Of a stretch of DNA of 23,061 nt, positions 2,652-16,704 are shown one piece after another (the first letter of the stretch is position 1; the number at the start of each line of letters is the position of its first letter). Both the position numbers and the translations under genes were made by a program. Below the pieces are notes generated by a model. That model worked only from the letters and a program-made list of their open reading frames with translations. It was not told the origin of the DNA and made no database searches. This stretch comes from a virus. Location: positions 1 to 23,061 of IMG/VR virus record IMGVR_UViG_3300021089_000025. The stretch is one strand, 5' to 3'.

Positions 2652-4871
2652 ATGGCGAAGAAGAAGTTTGAGAAGGTGGACGATGATGCACTCTTAGTGC
2701 AAATCGAGAGTGGAGTGAAAGGTTCTACAGGAACTTGGCTCAACTCATCTGACCTCACACGTGAAAGGCGTATGGCAACCCATGAGTATGCTGGTTTAGC
2801 TACAGGTCACTTATCACCTGAAGGTGTATCAGGGATTGTGTCTTCGGATACAACCGAGACGATAGAGGCTTACTTAGCTGTAATCTCTGAATTAATGTTA
2901 AACAATGAGAAGATCGCTAGGTTTACACCTTATGATCAAACACCTGCTGCACTTAAATCTGCACAGGATGCTTCTGATATTGTGAACTATTGTGTCTTTA
3001 AAAAGAACAATGGTTGGACACTACTGAATACGTGGATCAAAGCCTCCTTACTTTGGAAAAATGCAATTATCCGCTGGGATTATGTAGAAGATTTTAAATA
3101 CGAGTATGAAGAGTTTGATGAAATTAGCCAAGAATCCTTGGATGAGAAACTGGGTGAATCAGATGTTGAGATTGCAGGTGAATTGTTTATCTCACCTCGT
3201 ACTGACGGTGTGTATTATTCTGATGTTCGTTTAAAGAAGAAGATAGACAAGAGTCGTGTTAAGATTGAGAACATTCCTCAAGAAGGTTTTCGTATTAGTC
3301 GGGATGCCACTAGTCTAGATGATGCTGCCTTTGTAGGTATTGAACTAGATCTTACTCGTAGTGAGATTCGTTCTGAATGGCCTGATATCGCTAAAGATAT
3401 TGATGATTGGGATGATTTAGGTGATGAAAACTGGTCTGGTGAATACTCGGAAGAGATTGCTGCTCGTAAGCAAATCACTGGACAAAACTATAATGCCACC
3501 AGTTCTCGTGAAGATAACAGTGCATTAGAAGCTAGCCAGATTGTTACAGTTACTGAGTGTTGGATTAGAGTAGACCGGGATGGTGATGGTATTGCTGAAC
3601 TTAAGCACATCATTGTGGCTGGTGATAACGTACTATTTGAAGAAGATGTGGATAGCATTAACTTAGCATCTATCTGTCCTTTCGAAGTACCTTATGAGTT
3701 CTTTGGTCTATCTGTAGCAGATATGACCCGTAGCTCCACCTTAGCATCTACTGCGATATTACGTGGATTTGTTGAGAACACTTACTTAACGAACTACAGC
3801 CCTCGATTGGCTGACCCCAATGTTGTAGACTTCTCTGCCTTGCAGAACATGAAGCCTAAAGACATTATTGCAACTAACGGTAACCCGCAGGGTGCAGTTA
3901 CAATGTTGCAACCTGAAACAATCAGTACTGGTACAGTTCCTCTCTTGCAGCATTTGCAGATACATAAGGAACAAGCCACTGGTATGTCTAAGGCTGCACA
4001 AGGTTTGAATGATGAACTATATGTGTCAGGTAACTCTGAGACTAAGTTAGCAATGACCCAAACAGCTGCACAGAAGCGTATACAGCACATTGCACGTATA
4101 TTTGCTGAGACAGGCTTTAAGCGTTTAGCTGAAGGTGTCTACAGTACTATGCGTAGGAATATGAAGAAGGCTATTACACCAAACTACACTGGCGTTTATG
4201 CTATGGTAGATATTGATAAATTGCCTAATCATATGGATATGATTGTAGATGTGGATTTAGGTGAGAATAGCAACGCTAATAAGCGTAGTAAACTTACCAT
4301 GATTGCAACCCAACTACTTCCTATGGTTAAGGAAGGTGGTCAGGAAATGATTCTTCGACCTGACGTCACAGCTGCATTAGCAAATAACTTGCTATCTAGC
4401 ATGGATGAGAATCCATTGGACTACTTAGAAGATTATAATTCTGAAGAGTTCAAAGAGAAAGCTAAGGGTGACTCTGAGAAGAAACAGAAGGAAGCCGAAG
4501 AAGCTAAGAAGTTAGCTACAGAAGCTGAGAAGACACAGATGGATCTAGCTAAGGCTAATGTTAACTATACGAATGTACAAGCAAGTAATGCTATACAGGA
4601 TAATACTAAGCAACTAGCTGTAGCGATTGACAGACATTTCCAAGAGTGGGAGAAGCTACGTCAAGATGCTCTTAAGGATGAACTACCCCCTCCTCAAATG
4701 CCCAATATGGAAGAAACCATTAAGAAGGCATCTGCGGTTATTAGTGGGTTAGGTAAACCTCAAGATAGTGGCGGTGGTATCTTAGATGATGCTGTCCGTA
4801 AGATGGGTATTGAACCCGAACAAGCCATGCAGATGATGCAGAAAATGATGCAAGGCGGACCTCCGCAATAA
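2652..4871 (+). CDS. Portal protein
   Basis: At 739 residues this is in the size range of large podovirus portals, the dodecameric ring at the head vertex through which DNA enters and leaves. Portal-like features are the long acidic/aromatic N-terminal half, a central beta segment around RDGDGIAELKHIIVAGDNVL (about residues 309-328), and the following PFEVPYEFFGLSVADMTRSS. A long charged coiled coil follows (about 595-680, rich in EKKQKEAEEAKK), then a Met/Gln-rich tail (QAMQMMQKMMQGG) that could form the barrel or crown. Position after terL and before scaffold and capsid agrees. The start follows CGGAG at good spacing. The family call rests on motif style and synteny, not a search. Confidence 0.88.
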   Translation: MAKKKFEKVDDDALLVQIESGVKGSTGTWLNSSDLTRERRMATHEYAGLATGHLSPEGVSGIVSSDTTETIEAYLAVISELMLNNEKIARFTPYDQTPAALKSAQDASDIVNYCVFKKNNGWTLLNTWIKASLLWKNAIIRWDYVEDFKYEYEEFDEISQESLDEKLGESDVEIAGELFISPRTDGVYYSDVRLKKKIDKSRVKIENIPQEGFRISRDATSLDDAAFVGIELDLTRSEIRSEWPDIAKDIDDWDDLGDENWSGEYSEEIAARKQITGQNYNATSSREDNSALEASQIVTVTECWIRVDRDGDGIAELKHIIVAGDNVLFEEDVDSINLASICPFEVPYEFFGLSVADMTRSSTLASTAILRGFVENTYLTNYSPRLADPNVVDFSALQNMKPKDIIATNGNPQGAVTMLQPETISTGTVPLLQHLQIHKEQATGMSKAAQGLNDELYVSGNSETKLAMTQTAAQKRIQHIARIFAETGFKRLAEGVYSTMRRNMKKAITPNYTGVYAMVDIDKLPNHMDMIVDVDLGENSNANKRSKLTMIATQLLPMVKEGGQEMILRPDVTAALANNLLSSMDENPLDYLEDYNSEEFKEKAKGDSEKKQKEAEEAKKLATEAEKTQMDLAKANVNYTNVQASNAIQDNTKQLAVAIDRHFQEWEKLRQDALKDELPPPQMPNMEETIKKASAVISGLGKPQDSGGGILDDAVRKMGIEPEQAMQMMQKMMQGGPPQ

Positions 4872-4883
4872 AGGTGTTTTAAA

Positions 4884-5246
4884 ATGCGTAAGGAATATGA
4901 AGAAGTAGCTAAAAGACGTTTAGCTAATACAGCAAATCACGGTAGTCATAAGATTCACCCTGATGTGTTGGCACGTAAGGCCCATGTGGAAGCAGAGTTT
5001 ACATCTAGAGTTTTAGATGAATTCTTCATGTCTTCCTATGGGGAAATACTGGTAGAGTACTTCACTCAGTGGCTTAGAACAGAGCCACATGAGACGAAGA
5101 CCCGTGAGTTCTTATACTCTTGTGCTATGGCTTTGGGTTCCGTGAAGGAACAGCTGGTTAGGCAAGAAATGTATGGTAAGAACGTACCTGTTATGGATGA
5201 AATGAAGCACAAAGAAGAGGCCGATGCCTCAGAAGGAGAAGATTAA
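4884..5246 (+). CDS. Conserved-looking head-module protein, unknown function
   Basis: 120 residues, 12 bases after the portal stop, preceded by AAAGGTG. It is soluble and mostly helical. The N-terminus is basic, the centre aromatic (FFMSSYGEILVEYFTQWLRT), and the C-terminus acidic (EEADASEGED). No membrane segment or cysteine motif stands out. Its stop shares one base with the scaffold start (TAATG), so it is probably translated with the scaffold. The position between portal and scaffold suggests a role in prohead assembly, but I do not recognise the family. Confidence 0.8.
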   Translation: MRKEYEEVAKRRLANTANHGSHKIHPDVLARKAHVEAEFTSRVLDEFFMSSYGEILVEYFTQWLRTEPHETKTREFLYSCAMALGSVKEQLVRQEMYGKNVPVMDEMKHKEEADASEGED

Positions 5247-6349
5247 TGTCTATTATAGACCCTACCCAATCGGATGGCGCTATTGGCACTGATGCAGCTT
5301 TTGAAAAAGTACTGCAATCCAGTGATTTCTTTAAAGAAGCAGCAGATGGTGTACCTGAACTTGATGATCAGGCCACAGAAGAAGCTAGCACCGATGAACC
5401 CGAAGAACTTGAAGAAGTAGAGACAGAGTCTGATGACGACGATATTGTCGACGAAGAAGCTGAAGAAGAAGATGAAGAAACCTCTGATGAGGAAGAAACT
5501 GAAGAAGAAACTACGGACGACCCCGTTGGGGATATTCTAGATCCTGCAGAATATGATCTAGACAATCTGCTAGTAAGTGTTAAAATTGATGGTGAGGAAC
5601 GTACCGTATCTGTCAATGATGTAATAAAAGGTTACAGTACTGAACAATCTCTAGGTGCCAAGGGCCGTGAATTCGGAGAAGAACGTAAGAAGTTCGAATC
5701 TGAGAAGGCGACTTACAACCAAGAAATATCTGCGTTAGCCGCAGCAGCATCTGAGCAGCTAATGGCTAACGAGAAGTACTGGGAAGGGCAGTATGTATCT
5801 ATTGAGAAGGAACGGGAAACCGCTCGTGATGATGGTGATACATACGCCGCTTCTGAACTTAAAGACAAGTTAGGCGAAGCACAAGAACAATACTGGAATG
5901 CCCGTAAGCAGCGTGAGACTATCACGTCTAATGCTAAAGCGAAGCAGGATGGTATAGACCAAGCGATGATAAGTAAAGGTGTAGAGCATTTTAATGCTAC
6001 TATACATGAGCATATTTCGGATTGGGATGACTCTGTAGCTGCCGCTGTACGAACTTTTGCGCTAGAAGAGGGGTTACCTGAATCACTATTAAATGTGGTT
6101 ACTGATCCTGCTATTATTAAATTTGTCGACGGTTATAGACGTATGAAAACTAATGTGTCTACGGGTGCTAAGAAACGGGCTAAGGTTGTTACCAAAAAAG
6201 CTCCACCTAAAAAGGGCCAGAGTTCTCGTCAAAAAGACCAGACACGTAAGCTATCCACCCGCAATAAAGTATTATCCGGAAACGGGGATGCAAGCGATGA
6301 ACAGGATTTCTTACGTTCCTTAGCGGCTAGATCGCTGGGAGAACGATAA
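5246..6349 (+). CDS. Capsid scaffolding protein
   Basis: 367 residues. The first third is extremely acidic (runs of Glu and Asp around residues 45-95). Next is a short beta-like segment with LLVSVKIDGEERTVSVNDVI, a motif common in phage scaffolds. A long charged coiled coil (about 140-235) follows, and the C-terminal tail is strongly basic (KKRAKVVTKKAPPKKG near 310). Acidic start, coiled-coil rod and basic tail are the usual scaffold design; the tail would bind the capsid protein inside the prohead. It precedes the capsid gene and overlaps both neighbours by one base. Confidence 0.85.
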   Translation: MSIIDPTQSDGAIGTDAAFEKVLQSSDFFKEAADGVPELDDQATEEASTDEPEELEEVETESDDDDIVDEEAEEEDEETSDEEETEEETTDDPVGDILDPAEYDLDNLLVSVKIDGEERTVSVNDVIKGYSTEQSLGAKGREFGEERKKFESEKATYNQEISALAAAASEQLMANEKYWEGQYVSIEKERETARDDGDTYAASELKDKLGEAQEQYWNARKQRETITSNAKAKQDGIDQAMISKGVEHFNATIHEHISDWDDSVAAAVRTFALEEGLPESLLNVVTDPAIIKFVDGYRRMKTNVSTGAKKRAKVVTKKAPPKKGQSSRQKDQTRKLSTRNKVLSGNGDASDEQDFLRSLAARSLGER

Positions 6350-6811: not shown

Positions 6812-7926
6812 ATGGCTAATTATACTTCTACAGGCCCTAAGGGCAAGAACGCTGCCGCTACTACCGAAAAGGAAGACTTGGCGAACTTTATCTCGATGAT
6901 TACTCGTGATGAGACTCCGTTTACTTCTTCAATCGGTAAAAACAAAGCGACTGCAATCTTTCACGAATGGAACACTGACGAACTAGATACTGTTCGACAG
7001 TCTACTGTTGCTGAAGGAACTGACATCGGTTCTACCTTCCAGAACCCAGATGCCCGTGCTCGTTTAGGCAACTATACTCAAATCAACTCTAAGCAACTTA
7101 AGGTTTCTGGCACTAAACGTGCTGTAGATCAAGCTGGTGTAGCTGATGAGTACTCTTATCAATTGAAGAAGCGTGGCACAGAAATGCGTCGTGACTTCGA
7201 CATCCATGCAACTAGTTATGTTGGCGGTTCTACTGCTGCTGGTACTGATGCTGGTGCTAACACTGGTGGTGCTATCCGTCGTGCAGCTGGCTTCTTGTCA
7301 TTTGTAGACGCTGGTAACGTTACCTCTGCTGCTACTGTTTCTGGTACTGGTGATGCTGATGGTACTGTTTCCGCTACTGGTGGTGCTACTGTACTTCCTG
7401 TTGCTGCTACTGGTACTAACGCTGTTACCTTCGGTAAGCTTGAGTTATCTCAGGTTGACGAGACTATGCAGAAGATCTATGAAGCTGGTGGTAAAGCCAC
7501 TAAGTTAATGGTATCCCCTTCTCTACGTCGTGAGTTCTCTGCCAAGGCACAAGCTGCTGGTGCAACTACTTCTACTGGAGCTGGTTCTGTAGGTAACGCT
7601 CGTCGTTCTATTGACGACGGCAAGCTACGTCAATCAGTTGAGATGTACATGTCTGACTTCGGTGACATCATGGTTGTACCTAACTACTTGATGGGTCTAG
7701 CACCTAAGCAAGTAACTGGTACACTGATGCATCTGGTTTCGCTGCCGCTGACTCTACTGCCTTGATCTATGATCCAATGTGGTGGAATATCTCTACTCTA
7801 CGTCCTATGCAGGAAGTAGACGTAGGTCAGCAAGGTGACTCTACTGTCGGCCTAATGGTTGAAGAGTGTACCCTAGAATGTCGTAACCCTAAAGGTTCTG
7901 GCGTCATTGTTGGTCTAACTAAGTAG
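6812..7926 (+). CDS. Major capsid protein (DUF5309-type), apparent -1 frameshift
   Basis: This builds the capsid lattice. The N-terminal half (TKEDLANFISMITRDETPF-like start, then a stretch with TQINSKQLKVSGTKRAVDQAG) matches the style of DUF5309/SU10-like capsid proteins. Residues about 170-206 form a Gly/Ala/Thr/Val-rich insertion, possibly an exposed loop. The initial frame ends at TGA 7763-7765 (317 residues) with an unrelated-looking tail. The -1 frame is open from 7708 to TAG 7924-7926 and encodes the expected family C-terminus (ALIYDPMWWNISTLRPM, then VEECTLECRNPKGSGVIVGL). A join at codon 300 gives about 371 residues. One lost A in CAAAGT at 7710-7711 would explain it. The start follows TAGGAAAA. 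Strong codon bias toward GCT, GGT and ACT suggests high expression. Confidence 0.88.
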
Positions 7927-7939
7927 AAATACTAGTTAT

Positions 7940-7980
7940 AACCCTACAGGTAAATTAAGGTTTACTTGTAGGGTTTTTTT
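7940..7980 (+). terminator. Strong rho-independent terminator after capsid gene
   Basis: Bases 7940-7954 pair with 7961-7975 in a 15-bp stem with one G-U pair and a 6-nt loop (TTAAGG). A T-run continues to 7980. It lies 14 bases past the frameshifted capsid stop at 7926, not at the earlier stop 7765, which supports the longer capsid reading frame. Confidence 0.9.
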
Positions 7981-7995
7981 AATCTGGAGATGATG

Positions 7996-8289
7996 ATGAG
8001 TCTGAAGGACAAAATAATCTTTGATGGTAATTCTTTTCAAACACAAGTATCACAAGATATAAGTGGTATCATTGAGCAAGTGGATCTTGATAGGGAATTC
8101 CAAGATATACATGGTAAATCTAAAAAATACCGTAAGATAGCCACAATACCTGATATTGTTGCCATAGAAATTCTACAAAAGTTTGGTCTTGATATACATG
8201 CACCAGACTTCATGCACCACCCGGCTAATGGTCGGAAAATTAGACAAATACTTAAGAGCGAGTATCCAAAGCTTCTCTTAAACACCTAA
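7996..8289 (+). CDS. Small conserved-looking phage protein, unknown function
   Basis: 97 residues from ATG 7996. Three consecutive ATG codons (7990, 7993, 7996) follow GGAG at 7986-7989; only the third has normal spacing. The protein is soluble and basic. It has an N-terminal segment SQDISGIIEQVDLDREFQDI and a C-terminal half with PDIVAIEILQKFGLDIHAPD and a basic end. It sits between the capsid terminator and the adaptor gene. A virion assembly role is likely by position only; the family is not recognised. Confidence 0.8.
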   Translation: MSLKDKIIFDGNSFQTQVSQDISGIIEQVDLDREFQDIHGKSKKYRKIATIPDIVAIEILQKFGLDIHAPDFMHHPANGRKIRQILKSEYPKLLLNT

Positions 8290-8299
8290 GGAGAAGCTA

Positions 8300-9016
8300 A
8301 TGGCTTTAACAATCCCAGCATCAGTTGACAGCACTTATGTCGCATATAAAGTTGCACACCCTGCACTTATCAGCCTAGTAGACGATGTACGCGACTGGTT
8401 AAACCGTGACGAAGATACTGTGTCAAATAACTTGATTGGTTCATTCATGCAGAAAGCAGCTGATGATTCATATAAGTCATTACGTATACCACCTCTTGAG
8501 ACAACTACACCTGTGACCATAAATGCCACCGATGCAGCCATGAACCGACTAGCAATACCTGGAAACTTCACTGAGTTAATACGTTTGTCGAAGAGTCTTG
8601 GCAGTAACAAATATGATATCTATAACGATAAAGTCGAGTTATCCTCGTTTGATGATGAATATGCGCACAAGCCTAACTATAGGTATTTCACTCGTAAAGG
8701 TACTGATTTAAAGTTGAACCCCCCAGTAGTTGAAGGGGAAGTGTATGAGATACACTACTATCGTAGGCTATTCTCACTAGATGCCTTAACAACAGATACA
8801 GCCACAGAGATATATAATTGGCTACGTGATGATAATGAGAAGGCCTTCCTATTTGGTTCACTTAGATATGCTAGTGTCTATTTAAATGATATGGCAGCGG
8901 CTGATACCTATGAGAAGATGTTTAATGCTGAGATAGAGTCACTAAACATGGAAGAGAAGCGTCGATTAGCGCGTGGAGCCAATATTAGAACTATCTATAC
9001 CAGTGCATTGATTTAA
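8300..9016 (+). CDS. Head-tail adaptor (SU10-type connector)
   Basis: 238 residues, mostly helical. It is probably the ring below the portal that links head to tail. The start region LISLVDDVRDWLNRDEDTVS, a middle with AIPGNFTELIRLSKS followed by an aromatic YRYFTRKGTDLKLNPP, then GEVYEIHYYRRLFSLD, and a helical end with LRYASVYLNDMAAADTYEKM follow the pattern of phage adaptor proteins of the SU10 type. The start is preceded by AAGGAGA. Order (capsid, small protein, adaptor, fibres) fits. The family call is from pattern recognition; a T7 gp11-like connector is the same role by another name. Confidence 0.75.
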   Translation: MALTIPASVDSTYVAYKVAHPALISLVDDVRDWLNRDEDTVSNNLIGSFMQKAADDSYKSLRIPPLETTTPVTINATDAAMNRLAIPGNFTELIRLSKSLGSNKYDIYNDKVELSSFDDEYAHKPNYRYFTRKGTDLKLNPPVVEGEVYEIHYYRRLFSLDALTTDTATEIYNWLRDDNEKAFLFGSLRYASVYLNDMAAADTYEKMFNAEIESLNMEEKRRLARGANIRTIYTSALI

Positions 9017-9025
9017 GGGGATATT

Positions 9026-11152
9026 ATGACTAGTAATGCAGATGGCCTTGCAATAGGTGGTGCTTTTGCTAAAGATACAAATGAGAATTTGTTATTAGAG
9101 AGCACAGATGTTACAGCAGCAGCAGGGACGGCAGCAGGTCTTTCGATAGGTGGTCTTTTTGCCCAAGATTCAGATGACAACTTATTATTAGTTAGAACAG
9201 ATGCAGAGGCTGCGAATGCAGCACGTATAGCAGCAGAGCTTGCGGAAACCAATGCATTAGCTTCTAAAAATGCAGCAGATGCCGATGTGGTACTCACCAA
9301 TGCCGACGTAGTACTTGCAGAAGCTGATAAGGTCCAAACAGGGCTGGATAGAATAGCAACCAATGCTGACGTAGTCCTCACTAATGCTGCCGTAGTGGCA
9401 ACAGCAGCGGTAACTAATGCTGATGTGGTTCTTACACATGCTGATGTAGTATTAACTCATGCTGATGTAGTACTTACAAACGCTAACGTAGTAGCAACCG
9501 CAGCTGTAACTAACGCTGACGTTGTACTTACTCATGCTGACGTTGTGCTTACTAATGCAGATGTAGTTAGTGCCAGTTTGAGTAGTAATAATGCATCAGC
9601 AGCAGCCAATTATGCATTAGGTTACAAGAACGAGGCAGAAGCTGACAAGGAACAAACTGGCTTAGATAGGGTAGCTGTTGCAGCCGACTTGGTAGCAACT
9701 AATCAGGATACTTTAGATACTGCAGCAGATTTATTGGCCACACATCAGGATACTTTAGATACTGCAGCAGACAGAGTTCAGACAGGGTTAGACAGAGTTC
9801 AGACAGGGTTAGATGTGACTGCGACAGCAGCCGTGACTAACGCAGATGTAGTACTTACTCATGCTGATGTAGTACTTACTCATGCTGATGTAGTAACTAC
9901 TAACGCTGACGTTGTACTAGTCGAAGCGGATAAAGTACAGACCGGACTAGATAGAATTGCCACTGCAGCTGATAAAGTAGCAACTAACGCTGATGTTGTA
10001 AGTACTGCTGCTGATGCATCAACTGCAACCACACAGGCAGGTACCGCAACATCTAAAGCAATTGCGGCAGCAACAAGTGAGACTAACGCAGCAACAAGTG
10101 AGACTAACGCAGCAACAAGCGAGACTAACGCAGCAACAAGTGAGACTAACGCAGCAACAAGCGAGACTAACGCAGCAACAAGTGCGACTAACGCCTCAAC
10201 CTCTGCCAGTACAGCAACGGCTCAAGCTAGCACAGCCACTACCAAAGCCACAGAAGCGTCTATAAGCGCAACTAACTCTGCCTCAAGTGCTACAGCCTCG
10301 GCTTCAAGTGCCTCTACAGCGACCACACAGGCCAGTACAGCAACCACTCAAGCATCTAATGCGGCCAGTTCTGCAAGTTCTGCCAGTGGTTCAGCAAGTA
10401 CAGCGACTACTCAAGCCAGCACAGCGACTGCTCAGGCGAGTACAGCAACAGCTAAAGCTAGCCAAGCATCCACTAGTGCTACTAGTGCTTCTGGTTCTGC
10501 TAGTACGGCTACTACTAAGGCCTCAGAGGCAAGCACCTCTGCAGCAAGTGCCAGTACTTCGGCAACAAGTGCAGCTTCAGCTAAATCAGCAGCAGAGGCA
10601 GCAAGGGATGCAGCATTAGCCTCTTTTGATTCTTTTGATGATAGGTACTTAGGTAGTAAGACAACTGCACCAACAACAGATAATGATGGTAACGCCTTAC
10701 TAGGTGGAACCTTATACTACAACTCAACAAACAGCTCAATGCATGTTTATGAAGGTAGTGTTTGGGCATCTGCGTATGCTGCACCCTACACGTTACCATC
10801 CACTCTACCAGCTTCAATGCTGACCGGGCCATTACCTGCCATAGATGGTAGTTCTTTAACTAACTTACCACCAAACGGTGCTACACATATTGATGGTTTA
10901 CTAGACGTAGACACCAGCACCTCGGCACCTACGGCTCGTCAGGTATTAACATGGGATAGCTCCAGCAGTTTATGGAATCCCGAAGACTCTGTCACTTACA
11001 AAAGTGAAACAATAACAACCAGTAAAGTACTTGATGCGGATACTCAGTACTTAACAGGAAAGAACCTTGTTATAGAGCATGGTATAGTCCTGACGATACC
11101 TTCGAGTAGTCAGTTAATAACAAAACTCTGGACCGCCCAGAAACAACTATAG
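9026..11152 (+). CDS. Tail fibre stalk protein with heptad repeats
   Basis: 708 residues. An N-terminal tandem duplication (GLxIGGxFAxDxxxNLLLxxTD at residues 7-28 and 38-59) may anchor it to the tail. Residues about 90-330 are 7-residue repeats of ADVVLTN/H type. Residues 348-389 are six copies of AATSETN, and up to about 530 is Ala/Ser/Thr/Gln repeat, all suited to a trimeric coiled-coil shaft as in lambda Stf-type fibres. At about 535 SFDDRYLGSKTTAPTT starts a common phage fibre linker, then a domain with LYYNSTNSSMHVYEGSVW. Next comes LTGPLPAIDGSSLTNLPP, a motif shared with the following gene. It ends in a small beta-rich tail. The start follows GGGG. Confidence 0.85.
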   Translation: MTSNADGLAIGGAFAKDTNENLLLESTDVTAAAGTAAGLSIGGLFAQDSDDNLLLVRTDAEAANAARIAAELAETNALASKNAADADVVLTNADVVLAEADKVQTGLDRIATNADVVLTNAAVVATAAVTNADVVLTHADVVLTHADVVLTNANVVATAAVTNADVVLTHADVVLTNADVVSASLSSNNASAAANYALGYKNEAEADKEQTGLDRVAVAADLVATNQDTLDTAADLLATHQDTLDTAADRVQTGLDRVQTGLDVTATAAVTNADVVLTHADVVLTHADVVTTNADVVLVEADKVQTGLDRIATAADKVATNADVVSTAADASTATTQAGTATSKAIAAATSETNAATSETNAATSETNAATSETNAATSETNAATSATNASTSASTATAQASTATTKATEASISATNSASSATASASSASTATTQASTATTQASNAASSASSASGSASTATTQASTATAQASTATAKASQASTSATSASGSASTATTKASEASTSAASASTSATSAASAKSAAEAARDAALASFDSFDDRYLGSKTTAPTTDNDGNALLGGTLYYNSTNSSMHVYEGSVWASAYAAPYTLPSTLPASMLTGPLPAIDGSSLTNLPPNGATHIDGLLDVDTSTSAPTARQVLTWDSSSSLWNPEDSVTYKSETITTSKVLDADTQYLTGKNLVIEHGIVLTIPSSSQLITKLWTAQKQL
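10067..10192 (+). repeat. Six tandem 21-bp repeats in the fibre stalk gene
   Basis: Six in-frame copies of GCAGCAACAAGTGAGACTAAC, differing by one base in some copies (AGC for AGT, GCG for GAG), encode AATSETN. Near-identity at DNA level points to recent copy-number change by slippage or recombination. Each unit adds one coiled-coil heptad, so copy number would set shaft length. Similar but older 21-bp units occur upstream, including two exact-looking DRVQTGL units at about 9772-9812. Confidence 0.9.
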
Positions 11153-11161
11153 GAATCTAAA

Positions 11162-13867
11162 ATGAGTATAAAATTAAATAGTTCTAGCGGTTCAATTACG
11201 ATTGCACCCGAAGATGGTACAGGTAATGTTGACGTAACAATCCCACGAGCTGGAGTGTTATCGGCTGGGGCTAACTCAGTCACAGACACAGAATTAAACT
11301 CTGCTAAGTTGAACGGCATTGAAGCAGGGGCCACAGCAGACCAAACCAAAGCTGATATTGAGGCGTTAGGTATTGCAGCGAGTTCTATCACAGGTGCATT
11401 ACCTGCGATCAGCGGTGCCAACTTAACCAACCTACCCAGCGGTGGCGCTTCTGATATTGATGGTCTAACTGATGGTACAACATCAGGTACAGGTAATACT
11501 GGATTGGGTGATTCTGCTTTAGACTCAATCACTTCAGCTACTAATAACACAGCTGTTGGTACTAGGTCTTTAACAACAGCTACTTCAGGTTCTCAGAACA
11601 CAGCAGTTGGTACAGATTCTTTAAAAGTAATGACCACGGGTTCTCAGAACACAGCAGTTGGTTATCTATCTTTAAAGTACAATACCACAGCTAGTGACAA
11701 TACAGCAGTTGGTTCAGTCGCTTTAACAAATAACACCACAGGCAATAGGAACACTTCTTTTGGTGTCCAAAGTATGACGAGTAACACTTCTGGTTACTAT
11801 AGTACGGCAGTTGGTTATTCAGCTAGTCATAGGGCAACTACTGGTGCTCACAATGTATCAGTTGGTAATACAGCTCTCTATAAGACTACTACTGCTGGTT
11901 ACAATACAGCAGTAGGCTCGGGGGCTTTGTTTGAAAGTAATAGTGGAAATAATATAGGTATAGGCTACAATGCGGGATTGCTTATCACAACTGGTTCTAA
12001 CAACACTGTTATAGGAACTCTTGGGGGTTCCACAACTATGGCTAGTACAGTTCTAATTGGAGCTGGTACTACTGAGCGATTAAAGATCGACAGCACTGGT
12101 CTATATGTCAATGGCTCTTCTACTGCTTTGGGTGGTGGTGGCGCATCAGATATTGACGGACTAACGGATGGTTATAGTGACGGTAGTTCTGTTGGGTTAG
12201 GTACAGGTGCTCTAGCTAACGATGATGGCACATCTAACAAGAATGTGGCCGTTGGTCTTAATGCTTTAAACACTTGCACCAGTGGTGGTGATAACACGGC
12301 CGTTGGTCGAGAAGCTTTACTGGACTTAACCATCGGCAATTATAATACAGCTGTTGGTACTCAAGCGATGAAGAAGGCCACCACAGGTAACAGGAATACA
12401 GCAACCGGTTCTCATTGTCTGTGGAACAATAGTACAGGTGATGGTAATACCGCTAGTGGTCATTATTCCATGTTCAGCAACTCCACAGGTTCTTATAATA
12501 CCGCTAGTGGCTTTAAAGCCTTAAAGAGTAACTCTACGGGTACTAAAAACACAGCTACTGGTTATCAGGCTTTATACACTAACACCACAGGTCCAAGTAA
12601 CACAGCCAGTGGTTCTTATGCTTTATACTCTAACACCACAGGTGCTAGTAACGCGGCTTTGGGGTATAAAGCACTTTACGATAACACCACAGGTAATAAG
12701 AACACAGCTACTGGTAGTTATACTTTAACTAATAATATCTCAGGTAACTATAACACAGCTAGTGGTATGTATGCTTTGCACAATAGCACTGCTTCAATAA
12801 ACACAGCTACTGGTTATCAGACTTTAATGTATAACACCGTTGGTGAAAGGAACGTAGCTACTGGTGTTGGTGCTATGAGGAATAATATCTCAGGTAACTA
12901 TAACACAGCTTCTGGTACTTATGCTTTAAAGAATAGTACCAGTCATAACAACACAGGTCATGGTTATAGAGCTTTATATAATAATACCTCAGGTACTAAG
13001 AACATTGGCATTGGCGCAAATGCAGGTGATGCAATTACTACCGGATCTAACAACACCATCATTGGTGATCTAGATGGTACTACTACTTTAGCTGATACAG
13101 TTCTCATTGGTGCTGGTACTACAGAACGATTAAAGATTGACTCAACTGGTCTATATGTTAATGGATCTGCAACTGCATTAGGTGGTGGTGGCGTTAACAT
13201 CACCTCAAATGCCACAGCACCCACTAGCCCAGCAGTAGGCGATCAATGGTACGACACTGCAAACGGTGTGCTGTATGTACGTGTTACTGACGGCACAGAC
13301 GCAGCATGGTTAGATATTTCATCTGCCAACGGTACAGCAGCAGCCGCAAGTGGCGGCGGCGGTGGAGCTTGGGAGGTCGTTTCAAGTACAACTTTAACCG
13401 GCAGCGCTGCTTCCGTCACTTTTACTGGGTTAGATTTTTCTACCTACAAATCCTACGCAATTCAATTATCAGGAATGAAAGCTGCTTATGCGAGTGGCGA
13501 TTGGGCATTTATTAGGGTGAACGGAAGCAGTAGTAATATTTACACATACGGTATGTTTAATGATTACCTTAATGCTACGTCAGGTAAATCTACAAGTTCT
13601 GGGTCTGCGACAAATAAATCTTCTCTAGCATATATGTCGGATGATACCCATGTCGTTTCTGGTATGTTGATAGTAAATTCAGATGCGGATAGAACAACCA
13701 TACAAGGCGATTATTCCAAACTGTACCCTGCGATTAATAACTACGATACATATACGAGATATTTAGGCAGAGCTGATCTAGGATCGATTGCCACTAGTTT
13801 AACGGTTGGTTGTACATGGGGTTTCGACGAAGGAACATTCACTTTATACGGCATTAAAACTTCATAG
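11162..13867 (+). CDS. Tail fibre with YadA-like beta-roll repeats and tip domain
   Basis: 901 residues. The order is a beta-rich N-terminus, then LPAISGANLTNLP and DIDGLTDG. Next is a first block of about 10 repeats of 17 residues (NTAVGxxxLxxxTTGxx; residues about 129-286). A spacer with VLIGAGTTERLKIDSTGLYV follows, then DIDGLTDG again, a second block of about 17 repeats (361-636) and the same spacer. After that come GDQWYDTANGVLYVRVTDG, a Gly-rich linker at 729-736 and a tip domain (about 731-901) ending GTFTLYGIKTS. The repeats match the left-handed beta-roll heads of trimeric autotransporter adhesins, so a trimeric fibre is expected. The tip is the likely receptor-binding part and is shared in design with the next two genes. 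Confidence 0.87.
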   Translation: MSIKLNSSSGSITIAPEDGTGNVDVTIPRAGVLSAGANSVTDTELNSAKLNGIEAGATADQTKADIEALGIAASSITGALPAISGANLTNLPSGGASDIDGLTDGTTSGTGNTGLGDSALDSITSATNNTAVGTRSLTTATSGSQNTAVGTDSLKVMTTGSQNTAVGYLSLKYNTTASDNTAVGSVALTNNTTGNRNTSFGVQSMTSNTSGYYSTAVGYSASHRATTGAHNVSVGNTALYKTTTAGYNTAVGSGALFESNSGNNIGIGYNAGLLITTGSNNTVIGTLGGSTTMASTVLIGAGTTERLKIDSTGLYVNGSSTALGGGGASDIDGLTDGYSDGSSVGLGTGALANDDGTSNKNVAVGLNALNTCTSGGDNTAVGREALLDLTIGNYNTAVGTQAMKKATTGNRNTATGSHCLWNNSTGDGNTASGHYSMFSNSTGSYNTASGFKALKSNSTGTKNTATGYQALYTNTTGPSNTASGSYALYSNTTGASNAALGYKALYDNTTGNKNTATGSYTLTNNISGNYNTASGMYALHNSTASINTATGYQTLMYNTVGERNVATGVGAMRNNISGNYNTASGTYALKNSTSHNNTGHGYRALYNNTSGTKNIGIGANAGDAITTGSNNTIIGDLDGTTTLADTVLIGAGTTERLKIDSTGLYVNGSATALGGGGVNITSNATAPTSPAVGDQWYDTANGVLYVRVTDGTDAAWLDISSANGTAAAASGGGGGAWEVVSSTTLTGSAASVTFTGLDFSTYKSYAIQLSGMKAAYASGDWAFIRVNGSSSNIYTYGMFNDYLNATSGKSTSSGSATNKSSLAYMSDDTHVVSGMLIVNSDADRTTIQGDYSKLYPAINNYDTYTRYLGRADLGSIATSLTVGCTWGFDEGTFTLYGIKTS
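11546..12020 (+). repeat. First block of 51-bp (17-residue) beta-roll repeats
   Basis: About ten degenerate in-frame units, each starting at an Asn codon followed by a Thr-Ala-Val-Gly-type core, recur every 51 bases. Phase is kept with few length changes. The block ends in a distinctive unit NTVIG before the spacer module that recurs after the second block. Confidence 0.85.
12242..13070 (+). repeat. Second block of 51-bp (17-residue) beta-roll repeats
   Basis: About seventeen units of the same design as the first block. Here the core shifts from AVG toward ATG/ASG and the end toward NNTTG. Two units are shortened by one or two residues. One 20-base segment (ATCTCAGGTAACTATAACAC) occurs twice, near 12737 and 12887, showing recent internal duplication or conversion. 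Confidence 0.85.
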
Positions 13868-15664: not shown

Positions 15665-15895
15665 ATGTCTAAAACGACTAAAAAAGAACAGACTATTACT
15701 ATTAACGATAAAGAATATAACCTAAGTGACTTCACGCCTGAGCAATCAGGACTGATGAATCATATAGCAGACTTAGAACGTAAGATTGGTTCTAGTCAAT
15801 TCAATCTAAACCAGCTTATGTTTGGTAAGGAAGCCTTCGTTAATGCTCTCGCTAACGCTCTTGAGAGTGCAGGAGAAGCCGAAGGGGTCGAGTAA
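15665..15895 (+). CDS. Small phage protein, DUF6447-like
   Basis: 76 residues after AGGAG. A short beta hairpin (TITINDKEYNLSDFTPEQ) is followed by one long helix with NHIADLERKIGSSQFNLNQL and an acidic end. This beta-then-coiled-coil design resembles DUF6447-type small proteins common in marine phages. Its stop shares a base with the sulfotransferase start (TAATG), so the two are probably co-translated. Function unknown. Confidence 0.72.
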   Translation: MSKTTKKEQTITINDKEYNLSDFTPEQSGLMNHIADLERKIGSSQFNLNQLMFGKEAFVNALANALESAGEAEGVE

Positions 15896-16704
15896 TGAAG
15901 GAGATATTCTATCAGGCATCACTGCCCAGAGCAGGGTCTACCTTATTACAAAACATCTTAGGCCAACATCCAGACTTCTACGTTACCCCCACATCAGGGG
16001 TGCTAGAGTTAGTGTTTGGGGCCAGAGTTAACTTTGATACTTCTCCTGAGTTTAAAGCTCAAGATAGTGCAGAGATGGTAACAGGATTCAGGGCGTTTTG
16101 CTCTGAGGGCGTTAAAGGTTTCTTTAATGCTATAACCGATAAGCCTTACATTGTAGATAAAAGTAGGGGTTGGGGGGTTTATTATGACTTCCTTAGCTTC
16201 TATCAGGATAGCCCTAAAGTTATCTGTATGGTCAGGGATTTACGAGATGTGTTCAGCTCTATGGAGAAACAACATCGTAAAGCTCAGAAGACCTCCAGTG
16301 GTATTAGTAATGATGGTGAGATGGAAGGTACTACCACAGCTAAACGTGTGGATATATGGGCTAACTCTCAACCGGTTGGTCTAGCCTTAGACAGATTACA
16401 TCAGGTGTTACTAGAGAAGCATCCTATCTTATTTGTTAGGTATGAGGACTTAACTAAGAACCCTCATACAGAATTAGATAAGATTTATGATTACTTAGGT
16501 GTACCTAAACATAAGCATAACTTCACAGATGTTAAACAAATCACTGAAGAAGATGACAGTGTGTATGGTGGAGCTGGTGACCACACAATCAGAGGTGATG
16601 TTAAAGCATTACCTTCTGACTATGATGATGTACTAGGTAAGCAGACTGCCGAGAATATCAAAAGAGGGTACCCTTGGTTCTATGAAACCTTTGGGTACAA
16701 CTGA
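15895..16704 (+). CDS. PAPS-dependent sulfotransferase family protein
   Basis: 269 residues. The family moves a sulfonate group from 3'-phosphoadenosine-5'-phosphosulfate to a hydroxyl or amine on a glycan, protein or small molecule. The 5'-phosphosulfate loop is SLPRAGSTLLQNIL (residues 9-22, core PRAGST 11-16). The 3'-phosphate site is MVRDLRDVFSSMEK (112-125), with Arg and Ser at expected spacing. DKSRGW (88-93) and RYEDLTKNPHTEL (182-194) are also typical. It has no signal or membrane segment, so it acts in the cytoplasm. Its place between fibre accessories and lysis genes suggests it modifies a virion glycan or host surface precursor; substrate unknown. Confidence 0.88.
   Translation: MKEIFYQASLPRAGSTLLQNILGQHPDFYVTPTSGVLELVFGARVNFDTSPEFKAQDSAEMVTGFRAFCSEGVKGFFNAITDKPYIVDKSRGWGVYYDFLSFYQDSPKVICMVRDLRDVFSSMEKQHRKAQKTSSGISNDGEMEGTTTAKRVDIWANSQPVGLALDRLHQVLLEKHPILFVRYEDLTKNPHTELDKIYDYLGVPKHKHNFTDVKQITEEDDSVYGGAGDHTIRGDVKALPSDYDDVLGKQTAENIKRGYPWFYETFGYN

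What the first reader, a model, noticed from the sequence alone, without database searches (positions are those of the whole stretch)
7705..7926. Major capsid gene broken by an apparent -1 frameshift
The initial frame stops at 7763-7765 with 17 odd residues after codon 300. The -1 frame is open from 7708 to 7923 and encodes the family's conserved C-terminus. The terminator follows the second stop by 14 bases. Restoring one A in CAAAGT (7710-7711) gives a smooth join KQ-SNWYTDASGF. A homopolymer sequencing error or real 1-base deletion is simplest. A recoding event giving two capsid forms, as in T7 gene 10, is an alternative. GGTTTC at 7735-7740 is a possible but poor slip site.
Basis: partly seen in the sequence, partly recalled or inferred. 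Interest (0 to 1): 0.72.

Follow-up and report, generated by a model that had tools for sequence, protein, structure and literature searches.

The report
One-base break in phage capsid gene
The capsid gene of this marine phage looks split only because this one assembled sequence is a single base shorter than its relatives, almost certainly a sequencing or assembly slip (or a rare dud mutation), so it is ordinary.

Summary
The reading-frame break is real in the window: the SU10-type major capsid gene (6812-7765) stops early, and the family's conserved C-terminus lies in the -1 frame (7708-7926), followed by a terminator at 7940-7975. Two other IMG/VR contigs carry essentially the same phage (99.96% identical over 5,029 bases; 99.6% over 13,210 alignment columns). 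Both have the capsid as one uninterrupted 371-codon frame. The only frame-breaking difference between them and the window in either comparison is one missing base at about 7720-7723. Of 161 related loci, 158 hold both halves in one frame and the other three run off a contig end first. No relative has the 17-residue tail as a C-terminus. The exact window junction occurs in no other indexed viral contig. The overlap has no canonical slippery heptamer. Most likely this is a consensus error in one contig; a rare real deletion in an inviable or minority genome is the main rival. It is an ordinary capsid gene with an artefactual break.

The parts
6812..7723 (+). Major capsid gene, in-frame N-terminal part (about 304 residues), SU10_MCP family
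   Evidence: Pfam PF17236 E 3.5e-51; 100% identical to two other contigs over residues 1-304
7720..7723 (+). Site of the frame break: the window is one base shorter here than near-identical relatives
   Evidence: Base-by-base comparison with L169 (13,210 alignment columns) and L170 (5,029): the only indel that is not a multiple of three
7724..7765 (+). Out-of-frame tail of the interrupted reading and its stop; no counterpart in relatives
   Evidence: Relatives' proteins leave this frame here; all 41 substitutions in this overlap among relatives fall at third positions of the other (C-terminal) frame
7724..7926 (+). Conserved C-terminus of the capsid protein, in the -1 frame
   Evidence: Pfam PF17236 profile positions 236-292, E 5.9e-13; identical to residues 309-375 of the ORF in the sister contigs
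7940..7975 (+). Intrinsic terminator after the capsid gene
   Evidence: 16-pair stem, loop 4, T tail

Best explanation
The window holds an ordinary SU10-type major capsid gene whose frame is broken by a one-base shortfall at about 7720-7723, present only in this assembled record. Most likely it is a consensus error of sequencing or assembly. The phage itself would encode one continuous capsid protein of about 371 residues, as its near-identical relatives do.
For: Two separately assembled contigs (IMGVR_UViG_3300027501_000029, IMGVR_UViG_3300031773_000135) match the window at 99.96% over 5,029 bases and 99.6% over 13,210 alignment columns. The other indels are 42 bases (in a repeat) and 3 bases (at a contig end), both in frame; the only frame-breaking difference is one base at 7721. 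Both contigs carry the capsid in a single ORF. 158 of 161 related loci have both halves in one ORF, and the remaining three end at the contig edge first. The exact window junction is found in no other viral contig, the intact junction in two. Among relatives, substitutions downstream of the break fall 45/13/148 at codon positions 1/2/3 of the C-terminal frame, and 0/0/41 inside the overlap, so that frame is the selected one. Other window genes with near-full-length homologues show no comparable break.
Against: Raw reads are not available, so error and rare real mutation cannot be told apart directly. The site is only a two-base run, not a long homopolymer, so it is not a classical error hot spot. 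Nothing else in the compared 13.2 kb looks like an error.
Confidence: 0.8

Rival explanations
1. A real, recent one-base deletion in a genome of this phage population. It truncates the capsid protein to 317 residues without its C-terminal region, and the genome persists only as an inviable or complemented minority.
For: The sequence downstream is 100% identical to intact sisters, as expected of a very recent mutation as well as of an error; the site is not a long homopolymer.
Against: The lost part belongs to the conserved Pfam domain, and SU10 needs 715 copies of an HK97-fold capsid protein per head (PMC9509320), so the mutant should not multiply. A consensus should show the majority form. 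No second record carries the form.
Confidence: 0.17
2. Programmed -1 frameshifting makes a short (317 aa) and a long capsid form, as in T7 gene 10.
For: Both frames are open together over 7708-7765; the RNA downstream folds somewhat better than shuffles (z -2.88).
Against: Near-identical relatives carry the gene in one frame, so there is nothing to recode. There is no canonical X XXY YYZ heptamer in the overlap, and the best candidate, GGTTTCG at 7735, keeps only 2 of 3 and 1 of 3 matches. In T7 the short form is the main functional product (general knowledge); here it would lack a conserved part of the fold. Slipping at 7735 would also give a junction that no relative has.
Confidence: 0.02

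Closest known systems
SU10-type major capsid proteins (Pfam PF17236, formerly DUF5309)
   Same: Both pieces match, in order, covering profile 5-234 and 236-292; SU10 portal and adaptor families also occur in the window
   Different: In the window the gene is broken by one base; in relatives it is continuous
Roseobacter phage CRP-7 (MK613349.1) major capsid gene gp55
   Same: About 50% protein identity over residues 9-296, 68% over the C-terminal part; same order terminase, portal, scaffold, capsid
   Different: A single 393-codon gene (7904-9085 in locus L162) without frame break
T7 gene 10 -1 frameshift (10A/10B)
   Same: Superficially, a capsid reading frame ending near the 3' end with a -1 frame open beyond it (T7 facts from general knowledge)
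   Different: No usable slip site; the -1 frame encodes part of the conserved fold rather than an optional extension; relatives have no break

Membership tests
SU10-type major capsid protein (PF17236) | Match to the family profile above its cut-off, over its length | tested here: met
   174.9 and 49.4 bits against a cut-off of 24.1 for the two pieces, together profile 5-292 of 292
SU10-type major capsid protein (PF17236) | Sits among SU10-like portal and adaptor genes | tested here: met
   SU10_portal E 1.9e-124 at 2652-4871; SU10_adaptor E 1.2e-18 at 8300-9016
Programmed -1 frameshift capsid gene (T7 gene 10 type) | Slippery heptamer in the overlap of the frames | tested here: not met
   No X XXY YYZ heptamer in 7708-7765
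Programmed -1 frameshift capsid gene (T7 gene 10 type) | The two-frame arrangement is conserved in relatives | tested here: not met
   158 of 161 related loci have one frame, the others are cut by contig ends; sisters at 99.6-99.96% identity have one frame
Programmed -1 frameshift capsid gene (T7 gene 10 type) | Two protein forms are made | not testable with these tools
   Needs virions and mass spectrometry

The most novel reading that the evidence does not exclude
The shortened form is a real variant in the sampled population, and the phage makes working capsid from it by an unrecognised recoding event at a non-canonical site.
Probability: 0.01. Interest if true: 0.6.

Novelty: not a real feature. 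Interest (0 to 1): 0.05.

Why it matters
It mainly matters as a caution: a capsid frame break in a single metagenomic virus contig should be checked against near-identical contigs before recoding is proposed. The capsid protein here should be annotated as one interrupted gene with a suspected consensus error; intact relatives have one frame of about 371 residues.

Tried and rejected
Slip-site scan of the whole overlap: no canonical heptamer. RNA fold of the stretch downstream of GGTTTCG: z -2.88, modest, and not meaningful without a slip site. Search for other records with the same break: none. Search of plasmid records: only distant capsid matches in Sinorhizobium. Solved structures: relatives 9ny2 and SU10 7z45 match the N-terminal part and 9ny2 weakly the C-terminal part. 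A literature search for indel errors in viral contigs was run, but no paper was read for it and nothing rests on it. No structure prediction was run because the family is clear.

Full report
What is there. The window is a virus record of 23,061 bases carrying the structural genes of a tailed phage: portal (SU10_portal, 2652-4871), scaffold-like protein (5246-6349, matching the CRP-7 gene annotated as putative scaffolding protein), capsid (6812 onward) and adaptor (SU10_adaptor, 8300-9016). The nearest annotated phage genome found is Roseobacter phage CRP-7, with the same gene order.

The observation. The capsid frame from 6812 ends at 7763-7765 after 317 residues, while the -1 frame is open from 7708 to a stop at 7924-7926. 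The two pieces match successive, nearly abutting parts of one Pfam profile, SU10_MCP: positions 5-234 and 236-292. A terminator-like hairpin follows at 7940-7975.

Where the break is. Two contigs in the viral collection carry practically the same phage. Against IMGVR_UViG_3300031773_000135 the window aligns over 13,210 columns at 99.57%. The differences are substitutions, a 42-base difference within a repeat, a 3-base difference at the contig end, and one base at 7721. Against IMGVR_UViG_3300027501_000029 (5,029 columns, 99.96%) there are exactly two differences: one substitution and the same one base at 7721. Both contigs have the capsid in one frame; L003, a stretch of the first, reads ...LAPKQVTGTTDASGFAAADS..., and the DNA across the join is the same in the second.

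Relatives in general. Of 161 related loci (160 from two searches, about 146 different contigs because 14 contigs were fetched by both, plus CRP-7), 158 have the N- and C-terminal parts in one ORF. The other three (L017, L018, L068) run off the contig before the C-terminus. None has the window's 17-residue tail as a C-terminus. Scans of the viral collection for the exact junction found the window's form in no other record and the intact form in the two sisters.

Which frame is selected. Comparing the window downstream of the break with 12 loci, the differences fall 45, 13 and 148 times at positions 1, 2 and 3 of the C-terminal frame; inside the stretch where both frames are open they fall 0, 0 and 41 times. 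Some of these loci are near duplicates, and in some the comparison starts up to 23 bases into the stretch, so the counts are not independent or complete, but the direction is clear: the C-terminal frame is the coding frame right back to the break.

Recoding. No heptamer of the form X XXY YYZ exists in the overlap. The RNA after it folds somewhat better than shuffles (z -2.88), which is weak and has no slip site to serve. Since near-identical phages carry the gene uninterrupted, recoding is not needed and not supported.

Error or mutation. The evidence cannot fully separate a consensus error from a very recent deletion, because the sequence beyond the break is identical to the sisters either way. 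A capsid lacking the conserved C-terminal region should not assemble: SU10 builds its head from 715 copies of a single HK97-fold capsid protein (PMC9509320); the consequence of truncation is inference. A consensus should represent the common form, so an error is favoured (about 0.8), with a real but inviable or minority mutant at about 0.17. The sequencing technology and reads are unknown here.

Conclusion. Ordinary SU10-type capsid gene, one-base contig-specific break, most likely an artefact. Nothing novel.

Noticed in passing
window 10129-10182: A 42-base (two 21-base units, 14 residues) copy-number difference in the repeat part of a putative tail protein (9026-11152) between the window and an otherwise nearly identical contig; in frame.
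   Followed up: partly
window 15895-16704: Sulfotransferase-family gene (Pfam Sulfotransfer_3, E 3.2e-19) among the phage's tail-side genes.
   Followed up: no
window 11162-13867: Putative tail fibre protein made largely of short NTAxG-type repeats that resemble the head repeats of trimeric adhesins (by eye, not tested).
   Followed up: no
window 7742-7830: Coding RNA folds better than dinucleotide shuffles (z -2.88); no role assigned.
   Followed up: partly
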